Shown here: piece by piece, positions 20,704 through 42,274 of the stretch | Position numbering within the stretch: the stretch's first letter is position 1 | How the letters are laid out: every line of letters begins with the position of its first letter | Source: Cyclobacteriaceae bacterium | GTDB lineage: Bacteria; Bacteroidota; Bacteroidia; Cytophagales; Cyclobacteriaceae | Length of the DNA: 64,000 nucleotides | Direction of reading: 5' to 3' | NCBI GenBank assembly: GCA_958296015.1 | Contig: CATQIH010000029.1 | Span: forward strand, 1 to 64,000 | Notes under the pieces: generated by a model | The model's database searches: none | What the model saw: the letters and a program-made list of their open reading frames with translations, nothing else | Told to the model about the DNA's origin: nothing | Made by a program: the position numbers and the translations under genes

Positions 20704-21774
20704 ATGCATCAAGATAGCAAAGAATTTTTAGTGAAGTATTTGAATAACGCTTCCCCTACGGGTTTTGAATCCTCTGGCCAGCAAATATGGCTCGATTACC
20801 TGAAGCCTCATGTGGATGAGTACTTTACAGACACTTACGGCACCGTAGTAGGGGTGGTCAATCCGGATGCCAAATACAAAGTGGTGATAGAGGCACACGC
20901 CGACGAAATATCCTGGTTTGTCAACTACATCACTGATGATGGTTACATTTACGTACGCCGCAACGGCGGATCAGATCACATGATCGCGCCCTCCAAACGG
21001 GTGAACATCCACACCAAACAGGGCATGGTGAAAGGTGTGTTTGGCTGGCCGGCCATCCATGTGCGGGATGCTGCCAAAGAAGAAGCTCCTTCGCTCAAGA
21101 ACATTTTCATCGACTGCGGATGCAGCTCCAAAGAAGAAGTGCTGGAAAAAGGCATACACCCCGGCTCGGTCATCACCTTCGACGATGAGTTTATGGAAAT
21201 GAACGACCGCTATTATGTAGGCAGGGCACTCGACAACCGCGTTGGTGGATTTATGATCGCTGAAGTAGCCCGTAGGCTGAAAGAAAACAACCAGCGTCTG
21301 CCCTTTGGCCTGTATGTGGTCAATGCCGTGCAGGAAGAAATCGGGCTGCGGGGTGCCGAGATGATCTCCCGACGTATCAAGCCCGATGTAGCCATCATCA
21401 CAGATGTGTGCCACGATACGGCTTCACCGATGTACGACAAAAAGGTGAGCGGCGACCAGAAAGCAGGCAAAGGCCCCGTGCTCACCTATGGCCCGGCAGT
21501 GCAGAACAACCTGCTGGACATGATCATAGCCACTGCGCAGACGAAAGATATTCCTTTTCAGTGGGCCTCTGCCTCCAGGGCCACCGGCACCGATACCGAT
21601 GCTTTTGCCTACTCCAGCGAAGGCGTAGCCTCTGCGCTGATCTCTTTGCCATTAAAATACATGCATACAACCGTAGAGATGGTGCATCAGGAAGACGTAG
21701 AAAACGTGATCCGGCTCATGTACGAATTTCTGGTACAGCTCAAAAGCGAGCACGATTTCCGGTATATTAAATAA
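20704..21774 (+). CDS. M42-family metallopeptidase (glutamyl/deblocking aminopeptidase-like)
   Basis: EAHADEISWFVNYI, GRALDNRVGGFMIAEV, AVQEEIGLRGAEM, ASRATGTDTDAFAYS. Confidence 0.93.
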   Translation: MHQDSKEFLVKYLNNASPTGFESSGQQIWLDYLKPHVDEYFTDTYGTVVGVVNPDAKYKVVIEAHADEISWFVNYITDDGYIYVRRNGGSDHMIAPSKRVNIHTKQGMVKGVFGWPAIHVRDAAKEEAPSLKNIFIDCGCSSKEEVLEKGIHPGSVITFDDEFMEMNDRYYVGRALDNRVGGFMIAEVARRLKENNQRLPFGLYVVNAVQEEIGLRGAEMISRRIKPDVAIITDVCHDTASPMYDKKVSGDQKAGKGPVLTYGPAVQNNLLDMIIATAQTKDIPFQWASASRATGTDTDAFAYSSEGVASALISLPLKYMHTTVEMVHQEDVENVIRLMYEFLVQLKSEHDFRYIK

Positions 21775-21782
21775 AACAACCT

Positions 21783-21813
21783 TTTGTAAATACAAAAGAA
21801 TCATGTACTTTTG
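21783..21813 (+). promoter_or_regulatory. Bacteroidota-type promoter (TTTG-N19-TAnnTTTG)
   Basis: TTTG at 21783-21786, TACTTTTG at 21806-21813, 19-nt spacer; exact match to the consensus. Confidence 0.75.
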
Positions 21814-21819
21814 TAACAA

Positions 21820-21871
21820 CATGTTCACCCCCCTTCTCGTTAGATCAGGGCGCTTAGGGTGAACTTTTTTT
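21820..21871 (+). ncRNA. candidate AbiF-associated small RNA (antitoxin-like) ending in intrinsic terminator
   Basis: GTTCACCC (21823-21830) pairs perfectly with GGGTGAAC (21857-21864), followed by T7 (21865-21871). Inside: CCCT(21831-34)/AGGG(21847-50) and TCT(35-37)/AGA(42-44) around a CGTT loop. Sits between promoter and an Abi_2 gene. Confidence 0.72.
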
Positions 21872-21875
21872 ATTG

Positions 21876-22814
21876 ATGCCTATGCCTAAAGTGCGATATA
21901 ACAAGCCAGCACTCACTTATGAAGAACAACTCCAGCAATTAAAAAATAGAGGTCTTCGAATAGAAAACGATCAAAAAGCTCTTCATCTTTTAGAAAATAT
22001 CAGTTACTATCGTTTGAGTGCTTATTGGTATCCCATGTTAGCCTATCCAAAATCTGCGCATACTTTTAAACAAAATTCGTCTTTTGACGAATCATTTAAA
22101 TTGTATTGTTTTGACAGAGAATTAAGGAAACTGATCGTTGGAGAGCTTGAAAAAATAGAGGTGTCTGTTAGAGCGAAGATGAGTTATATTCTTGCTCATA
22201 GGCATGGGCCATTCTGGTATGAAAATAAGGATCTTTTCAAAGATCAAGATAAACTTGCTAATACTATACAAAAGCTAAAACAAGAACAACTTAGGTCTGA
22301 TGAAGAATTCATTAAAGCGTTTCGAAAGAAATACGCTAATCCTTACCCTCCAAGTTGGATGCTTTTAGAAGTTTCGTCTTTTGGCATTTTATCTAATTTG
22401 TATAAAAACCTAAGTGCTGGACGAAACAAACGAGATATAGCTAGTTACTTTGGCTTAGACGATTCTACTTTTGAGTCATGGCTTCATAGCCTTACTTATG
22501 TGAGAAATATATGTGCACATCACTCAAGGTTATGGAACAAAAAAATGAGTATACAACCTCAAGTACCACTGAAGCCATCAAACTTGTTTATCACAATTGT
22601 TAAACACCCAGACTCACTTCCGGGAAAAATGTCAGCAAGGCTAAATGATAAGACATACTTTATTTTGTGTATCATCATTTACTTGCTCAATACCATCAAC
22701 CCCAACCATACATTTAAGGATAAATTACAAAATTTATTCCTTAAATATCCAAATGTAGACAAAAGGGCCATGGGTTTTCCGGCAGGATGGGAAGAAGAAC
22801 TTATTTGGAGTTAG
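21876..22814 (+). CDS. Abi_2-family (AbiF/AbiD-like) abortive infection protein with HEPN RNase motif
   Basis: KPALTYEEQLQQLKNRGLRIENDQKALHLLENISYYRLSAYWYPM; FDRELRKLIVGELEKIEVSVRAKMSYILAHRHGPFWY; YVRNICAHHSRLWNKKM with R-x4-H (RNICAH). Starts possible at TTG 21873, ATG 21876 or ATG 21882. Confidence 0.9.
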   Translation: MPMPKVRYNKPALTYEEQLQQLKNRGLRIENDQKALHLLENISYYRLSAYWYPMLAYPKSAHTFKQNSSFDESFKLYCFDRELRKLIVGELEKIEVSVRAKMSYILAHRHGPFWYENKDLFKDQDKLANTIQKLKQEQLRSDEEFIKAFRKKYANPYPPSWMLLEVSSFGILSNLYKNLSAGRNKRDIASYFGLDDSTFESWLHSLTYVRNICAHHSRLWNKKMSIQPQVPLKPSNLFITIVKHPDSLPGKMSARLNDKTYFILCIIIYLLNTINPNHTFKDKLQNLFLKYPNVDKRAMGFPAGWEEELIWS

Positions 22815-42039: not shown

Positions 42040-42111
42040 TAGTCCGTAGGGGAATCGAACCCCTGTTACCAGGATGAAAACCTGGCGTCCTAACCCCTAG
42101 ACGAACGGACC
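42040..42111 (-). tRNA. tRNA-Glu (anticodon TTC)
   Basis: Reverse complement GGTCCGTTCGTCTAGGGGTTAGGACGCCAGGTTTTCATCCTGGTAACAGGGGTTCGATTCCCCTACGGACTA; cloverleaf with CCAGG-TTTTCAT-CCTGG anticodon arm and GGTTCGATTCC T-arm. Confidence 0.95.
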
Positions 42112-42202: not shown

Positions 42203-42274
42203 TAGTCCGTAGGGGAATCGAACCCCTGTTACCAGGATGAAAACCTGGCGTCCTAACCCCTAGACGAACGGACC
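42203..42274 (-). tRNA. tRNA-Glu (anticodon TTC), identical second copy
   Basis: Sequence identical to 42040-42111. Confidence 0.95.

What the first reader, a model, noticed from the sequence alone, without database searches (positions are those of the whole stretch)
21820..21882. Nested hairpin with U7 ending 4 nt before the abiF start codon: small RNA and toxin mRNA may share one promoter, split by termination
Outer stem GTTCACCC/GGGTGAAC (8 bp) encloses CCCT-TCT-CGTT-AGA-TC-AGGG (7 bp with a 2-nt bulge) and an unpaired CGCTTA on the 3' side. U7 (21865-21871) is followed directly by TTG/ATG starts at 21873/21876/21882. No second promoter fits between hairpin and ORF. Hence most transcripts should end as the small RNA, with toxin made only by read-through. 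The unpaired CGCTTA and CGTT loop are candidate recognition elements. The U-tract is also within reach of the ribosome footprint.
Basis: partly seen in the sequence, partly recalled or inferred. Interest (0 to 1): 0.75.

Follow-up and report, generated by a model that had tools for sequence, protein, structure and literature searches.

The report
AbiF toxin's RNA antitoxin and terminator
The hairpin just in front of this bacterial toxin gene is real and conserved: it is very likely a tiny RNA that both stops transcription before the toxin gene and binds the toxin to keep it quiet, and viruses of bacteria carry the same RNA without the toxin, perhaps to disarm it.

Summary
The hairpin is real. 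It belongs to a family found upstream of AbiF (Abi_2/HEPN RNase) genes across Bacteroidota. In 26 homologues the 8-bp outer and 4-bp inner stems are 100% paired, with compensatory changes in both. A Bacteroidota promoter (TAnnTTTG) lies 4-5 nt before the conserved RNA start in 25/26 (background 0.8%), a U-rich tract follows in 26/26 (background 4%), and the toxin ATG comes 10-23 nt after the hairpin, so no second promoter fits. This is a member of the AbiF-RNA (type III-like) toxin-antitoxin kind, with an RNA subtype that Rfam RF03085 misses; RNA subtype follows the AbiF protein clade.

The unexpected part lies outside the window. The same RNA cores occur without AbiF in phage genomes: 40 of 42 viral contigs found by three core patterns, about half next to tRNAs, with covarying stems. 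Six of six inspected isolate phages carry RF03085 RNA with no Abi gene annotated within 2 kb. The best reading is antitoxin mimics that neutralise host AbiF. That is inference, untested.

The parts
21783..21786 (+). -33 box TTTG of a Bacteroidota-type promoter; 19-nt spacer to the -7 box
   Evidence: a TTTG or TTG at spacer 19-21 is present in most relatives, not all
21806..21813 (+). -7 box TACTTTTG (TAnnTTTG)
   Evidence: same box 4-5 nt before the conserved AACA in 25/26 homologous loci, background 0.8%
21818..21871 (+). predicted small RNA (about 54 nt): +1 at A21818 (inferred from fixed promoter spacing), end in the U-tract
   Evidence: model R1 hit 21818-21872, 79.2 bits (the window is in the model's training set); transcript ends not measured
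21823..21830 (+). outer stem, 5' arm GTTCACCC
   Evidence: 100% paired in 25 distinct homologues, 5 of 8 pairs with compensatory changes
21831..21834 (+). inner stem, 5' arm CCCT
   Evidence: 100% paired; one pair flips GC to CG
21835..21846 (+). apical loop TCTCGTTAGATC, conserved; candidate toxin-contact element
21847..21850 (+). inner stem, 3' arm AGGG
21851..21856 (+). unpaired 3' bulge CGCTTA (CGCUYA in all 26 homologues), candidate toxin-inhibiting element
   Evidence: CGCTYA was also part of the extraction pattern, but one search found it by structure alone; a bulge holds the inhibitory nucleotides in PbAbiFr according to a review
21857..21864 (+). outer stem, 3' arm GGGTGAAC
21865..21871 (+). 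U7 tract of the intrinsic terminator
   Evidence: at least 6 T in 9 nt after the stem in 26/26 homologues against 4% background
21882..22814 (+). AbiF toxin gene (310 aa; Abi_2 family HEPN RNase), most likely start ATG 21882 (alternatives 21876, 21873)
   Evidence: Pfam PF07751 E 3.4e-59; PDB 8vz6 Abi family protein E 7.6e-71; start by alignment
22503..22520 (+). HEPN catalytic motif RNICAH (R208...H213)
   Evidence: Rx4H in 107/107 AbiF proteins; corresponding residues inactivate AbiFCd and PbAbiF when mutated (PMC12373285)

Best explanation
This is an AbiF toxin-antitoxin module whose antitoxin is the hairpin RNA. One Bacteroidota promoter starts transcription at about A21818. The first about 54 nt fold into the hairpin. 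With the U7 tract it terminates most transcripts, releasing an excess of the small RNA. Rare read-through gives the AbiF mRNA. The free RNA binds AbiF, mainly through its conserved loop and unpaired CGCUUA bulge, and keeps the HEPN RNase inactive. Stress or phage interference with RNA supply would free AbiF to cut RNA and stop growth. Shown here: module anatomy, conserved structure, promoter and U-tract placement, RNA subtype tracking toxin clade. Inferred from relatives: termination, read-through, toxin binding and neutralisation. Speculative: the trigger.
For: Structure and covariation: both stems 100% paired in type-A homologues, 6 pairs with changes on both sides, 0/500 shuffles as good; independent type-B set 100% paired, 4 pairs with compensatory changes. 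Promoter box at fixed 4-5 nt in 25/26. U-tract in 26/26 and ATG 10-23 nt after the stem. AbiF identity with HEPN motif. RNA type follows the AbiF protein tree: 16 label changes against 60 in shuffles. Same layout as Rfam RF03085 abiF RNA. Experimental precedent with the same logic: RCd22-AbiFCd, RACE-mapped single promoter, terminator and read-through, antitoxin in cis and trans, RNA-protein complex (PMC12373285); PbAbiF-ncRNA complex 8vz6 described in PMC12737573.
Against: No transcript or toxicity data for this genome. Two AbiF genes inside the type-A clade (L061, L075) have an intact HEPN motif but no hairpin upstream, so the RNA may not be obligatory in all cases. RF03085 itself does not score this RNA. 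14 of 24 strong chromosomal model hits lack an intact AbiF downstream, so the RNA can exist without acting as a leader.
Confidence: 0.86

Rival explanations
1. The hairpin is only a cis attenuator (terminator) that keeps toxin expression low; the released RNA has no function in trans.
For: Hairpin plus U-tract sits directly before the gene in all type-A loci.
Against: Loop and CGCUYA bulge are more conserved than a terminator needs; stand-alone copies, some without a clear U-tract and inside phage tRNA arrays, have covarying stems around the same core (the core itself was the search pattern); a related RNA neutralises AbiF in trans (PMC12373285).
Confidence: 0.07
2. Translational control: the hairpin (alone or bound by AbiF) lies in the ribosome footprint and mainly blocks initiation on the read-through mRNA, as a weak AU-rich leader structure does for lactococcal AbiD1.
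For: ATG only 10-23 nt after the stem; AbiD1 translation is activated by phage Orf1 and cold through a leader structure (PMC2661086).
Against: The AbiD1 leader structure is weak, AU-rich and sequesters an RBS; this one is GC-rich with a U-tract and leaves the start region unpaired in the short fold. It may be an added layer, not an alternative.
Confidence: 0.05
3. The hairpin ends the upstream M42 peptidase transcript and is unrelated to abiF.
For: It lies downstream of the peptidase stop (21774) on the same strand.
Against: Homologous hairpins precede AbiF in many genomes, with their own promoter box 4-5 nt upstream; the 200 nt printed after the M42 gene of 11 relatives show no similar arrangement and no AbiF.
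Confidence: 0.01

Closest known systems
RCd22-AbiFCd of Clostridioides difficile phi027 (PMC12373285)
   Same: AbiF/Abi_2 toxin; small RNA upstream from one promoter; terminator between RNA and toxin; toxin by read-through; conserved abiF hairpin motif.
   Different: RCd22 has two abiF motifs and a separate terminator (132-nt full-length transcript, ATG 168 nt from TSS). Here one hairpin serves as motif and terminator, RNA about 54 nt.
PbAbiF-AbiFr (PDB 8vz6; Zilberzwige-Tal et al., cited in PMC12373285 and PMC12737573)
   Same: Homologous AbiF (E 7.6e-71); one RNA per AbiF monomer reported; inhibitory single-stranded bulge reported.
   Different: PbAbiF sits in the type-C protein clade whose genes carry RF03085-type RNA (CUCUC loop, CAAAU bulge). 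The window has type A (UUCYCRU loop, CGCUYA bulge). The original paper was not available.
Rfam RF03085 abiF RNA
   Same: Consensus layout: 6-bp outer stem, one-nt bulge, 3-bp inner stem, 11-nt loop, 6-nt 3' unpaired stretch.
   Different: Sequence of loop and bulge differs; the model gives no hit to the window or 13 type-A loci at E up to 5.
ToxIN type III TA and the pseudo-ToxI escape RNA of phage phiTE (PMC3475682)
   Same: RNA antitoxin, terminator between RNA and toxin; phage RNA mimic defeats the toxin.
   Different: Unrelated toxin fold and pseudoknot RNA; the mimic expanded in selected mutants, whereas abiF-type orphans here are standing parts of many phage genomes.
AbiD1 of Lactococcus lactis (PMC2661086)
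   Same: Related Abi_2 protein controlled through its leader RNA.
   Different: Weak AU-rich structure, translational activation by phage Orf1 or cold; the authors saw no such structure before AbiF.

Membership tests
AbiF/AbiD (Abi_2) RNA-antitoxin TA module | Abi_2 protein with HEPN Rx4H motif | tested here: met
   PF07751 200.7 bits against cut-off 25.6; RNICAH at 208-213; PADLOC names it AbiD
AbiF/AbiD (Abi_2) RNA-antitoxin TA module | structured ncRNA directly upstream, same strand, own promoter | tested here: met
   (sequence and comparative evidence only)
AbiF/AbiD (Abi_2) RNA-antitoxin TA module | terminator between RNA and toxin, read-through toxin mRNA | tested here: inconclusive
   U-tract and position conserved; the generic terminator scan did not list it, as its loop limit is 8 nt; no transcript data
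AbiF/AbiD (Abi_2) RNA-antitoxin TA module | RNA binds and neutralises the toxin | not testable with these tools
   only indirect: RNA subtype follows the AbiF clade
Rfam RF03085 (abiF RNA) | score at or above the gathering score (37 bits) | tested here: not met
   no match at E up to 5 in 21700-22000 nor in 13 type-A relatives, while type-C L065 scores 58.5
Rfam RF03085 (abiF RNA) | outer stem / asymmetric internal loop / inner stem / 11-14 nt loop layout upstream of Abi_2 | tested here: met
classical type III TA (ToxIN/CptIN/TenpIN) | ToxN-fold toxin and tandem-repeat pseudoknot RNA | tested here: not met
   HEPN Abi_2 protein; single hairpin, no tandem repeat of it

The most novel reading that the evidence does not exclude
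Phages widely carry stand-alone copies of AbiF antitoxin RNAs (the window's subtype and two others) as RNA decoys that bind and neutralise host AbiF during infection. Many are embedded in tRNA arrays, where tRNA processing could release them. This would be an RNA counter-defence parallel to pseudo-ToxI and RNA anti-CRISPRs. Toxin-less chromosomal copies would be anti-addiction relics or shields. Evidence: 14/15 type-A, 13/13 type-B and 13/14 type-C viral contigs have no AbiF in the DNA fetched; stems covary; RF03085 RNA above threshold in phages of Acinetobacter, Aeromonas, Synechococcus, Mycobacterium and Salicola with no Abi gene annotated nearby.
Probability: 0.55. Interest if true: 0.82.

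Novelty: new variant of a known kind. Interest (0 to 1): 0.6.

Why it matters
AbiF is the proposed ancestor of Cas13 (as reported in PMC12737573 and PMC12373285), so how its RNA partner is made and recognised bears on how RNA-guided nucleases arose. The window gives a minimal form: one about 54-nt hairpin acting as antitoxin motif and terminator at once, in an RNA subtype that current RNA annotation misses. The comparative data name the elements to mutate (loop, CGCUYA bulge). The toxin-less copies in phages turn an unexplained annotation (an abiF sRNA in cyanophage S-CREM1, role unconfirmed: PMC9964418, PMC12197685) into a direct test of RNA-based counter-defence.

Tried and rejected
Rfam scan of the window and loci: no RF03085 match to type A. 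MFE-only hairpin search on unoriented loci gave noise until minus-strand loci were turned. Empty-site test with M42 peptidase neighbours: synteny not conserved, so no insertion boundary could be shown. The sigma-70 and terminator consensus scan is unsuited here (Bacteroidota promoter, 12-nt loop). NCBIfam had no match. The papers describing RF03085 (Weinberg 2017) and PbAbiF (Zilberzwige-Tal) are not held, so what they say about phage copies or subtype A is unknown. Type A and B copies were not found among isolate phages in INPHARED by blastn; only type C was. Rejected: third helix TCT/AGA; hairpin as terminator of the upstream gene. Considered but not run: the lactococcal phage sk1 region reported to protect from AbiF (Rince 2000, cited in PMC12737573); structure prediction of the window's AbiF (the sequence match to 8vz6 was enough).

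Full report
Observation. The sequence and stems are present as described, with two corrections: the inner helix is 4 bp, and the homologous AbiF start is ATG 21882, 17 nt after the stem and 10 nt after the U-tract. RNA folding gives -18.4 kcal/mol for 21819-21871, with 1 of 200 shuffles as good. The downstream ORF is an Abi_2 family protein (PF07751, E 3.4e-59; PADLOC AbiD). Its only convincing PDB match is 8vz6, 'Abi family protein', E 7.6e-71, which PMC12737573 identifies as PbAbiF bound to its ncRNA. The HEPN motif RNICAH is present. The genome has one Abi_2 gene. abiF has 35% G+C against about 50% on both sides, as expected of an acquired module; an empty site could not be shown.

Homologues. 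AbiF relatives were collected from the window's family and from named genomes. Most upstream regions hold a short hairpin of one layout: outer stem 6-8 bp, inner stem 3-4 bp, loop 11-14 nt, 3' unpaired stretch of about 6 nt, then a U-rich tract. Three main sequence types were seen. Type A (the window's) is AACAY-stem-CSCU-UYCCRUNAGAWC-AGSG-CGCUYA-stem. Type B is AACAGUAC..CACGCUACCCRUNAGAACAGCGUCCCAG. Type C has a CUCUC loop and CAAAU bulge. Minor types are D and E.

Structure test. In 26 type-A sequences (25 distinct), outer and inner stems are 100% paired. RNAalifold agrees apart from two extra pairs. Nineteen type-B sequences: 100% paired, 4 outer pairs with compensatory changes.

Promoter and terminator. 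A T[A/T]nnTT[T/C]G box ends 4-5 nt before AACA in 25 of 26 type-A loci; the same test at other positions of these loci is met at 0.8%. This places +1 at A21818 in the window (inference). At least 6 T in the 9 nt after the stem: 26/26 against 4% background; ATG 10-23 nt after the stem. There is no room for another promoter. In type B the ATG is mostly further away (about 20 to over 110 nt), so the one-promoter argument is strongest for type A.

Membership. RF03085 has the same layout and finds type C (58.5 bits in L065) but nothing in 13 type-A loci at E up to 5 and nothing in the window. In 297 Bacteroidota genomes it rings in two. Type A is thus outside the formal Rfam family although architecturally of that kind. 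On a tree of 107 AbiF proteins, RNA type needs 16 changes against 60 in shuffled labels. The window lies in a starred set of 27 rows (25 type A, 2 without a recognised RNA), and PbAbiF lies with type C.

Mechanism. C. difficile RCd22-AbiFCd has one mapped major 5' end, a terminator before the toxin, a short abundant RNA and a long read-through mRNA; RCd22 represses toxin expression in cis and neutralises the protein in trans, and stem-breaking mutations abolish while compensatory ones keep activity (PMC12373285). The review PMC12737573 reports that PbAbiFr nucleotides C32 and U38 in a single-stranded bulge inhibit the RNase. The window's unpaired CGCUUA is plausibly at the corresponding place. 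What differs from RCd22 is the economy: one hairpin does both jobs.

Toxin-less copies in bacteria. A covariance model of type A (R1) searched in 396 Bacteroidota genomes gave 24 matches of 58 bits or more. Ten have an intact AbiF downstream (including the window); five have truncated or frameshifted copies; three have short remnants; six have no trace. Of 14 genomes with toxin-poor loci, 10 have no Abi_2 match anywhere (some assemblies are incomplete). Orphans such as L130, L133 and L134 keep loop and bulge while outer stems changed on both sides. Antitoxin outliving toxin is what an addiction module predicts; stem maintenance suggests some are still useful.

Copies in phages. The type-A core pattern in IMG/VR hit 15 contigs; by my own estimate from the pattern's information (about 47 bits) chance would give about 0.001. 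Only L160 has AbiF downstream (in L172 only 71 nt follow). Stems of this set are 99% paired, with 7 of 8 outer pairs and 1 inner pair compensated (alignment fitted to the model); loop and bulge were fixed by the pattern, so their conservation is not independent. Type-B core: 13 contigs, none with AbiF; type-C core: 14 contigs, one with AbiF. About 18 of the 40 orphans lie within about 30 nt of a tRNA gene, often directly after it. Contigs L164, L165 and L168 encode phage baseplate or terminase proteins. Named phages with RF03085 RNA above threshold and no Abi gene annotated within 2 kb: Acj61, PZL-Ah8, S-SZBM1, Thibault, Baka, CGphi29. One published cyanophage, S-CREM1, has an annotated abiF sRNA with no known role (PMC9964418; PMC12197685). 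No held paper found here proposes the decoy role. Phage phiTE's pseudo-ToxI shows that such RNA mimicry works against an RNA-antitoxin system (PMC3475682). Alternatives for the phage copies: remnants of prophage-borne modules, or a role in phage regulation; the absence of any AbiF trace and the position in tRNA arrays speak against the first.

Verdict. As a mechanism it is a new variant of a known kind. The more surprising and directly testable result is the set of phage-borne, toxin-less antitoxin RNAs.

Noticed in passing
L158, L159, L161-L172 (type A), L173-L185 (type B), L186-L198 (type C): Viral contigs carry abiF-type hairpins without AbiF, many directly 3' of tRNA genes in phage tRNA arrays (often after tRNA-Thr for type B).
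   Followed up: partly
L200-L205 (phages Acj61, PZL-Ah8, S-SZBM1, Thibault, CGphi29, Baka) at about 2001-2038: RF03085 abiF RNA above gathering score in isolate phages with no Abi gene annotated within 2 kb; blastn found 58 phage records, 45 of them Mycobacterium phages.
   Followed up: partly
L114, L125, L128-L134, L136 (about position 1501): Chromosomal type-A hairpins with no intact AbiF downstream, some with covaried stems, in genomes that mostly have no Abi_2 gene at all.
   Followed up: partly
L017, L022, L025, L026, L031, L016 upstream of AbiF: Two-hairpin leaders in several loci: a promoter-proximal type-B-like hairpin then a type-C-like hairpin with terminator (L016: two type-B-like hairpins), resembling the two motifs of RCd22.
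   Followed up: no
L061 and L075: AbiF genes of the type-A protein clade with intact HEPN motif but no recognisable hairpin upstream.
   Followed up: partly
L069 upstream of AbiF: Type-C hairpin apparently split by an insertion of about 70 nt between inner stem and 3' outer arm.
   Followed up: no
L097 and L019 upstream of AbiF: Type-B hairpins whose usual loop is replaced by a longer, apparently self-complementary sequence.
   Followed up: no
window 21782-21797: Perfect palindrome TTTTGTAAATACAAAA overlapping the -33 box; L037 has a similar one (TTTTGTTTTAAACAAAA); possible operator or chance.
   Followed up: no
window 42040-42111 and 42203-42274 (-): Two tRNA genes with identical Rfam scores (61.8 bits), about 90 bases apart.
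   Followed up: no
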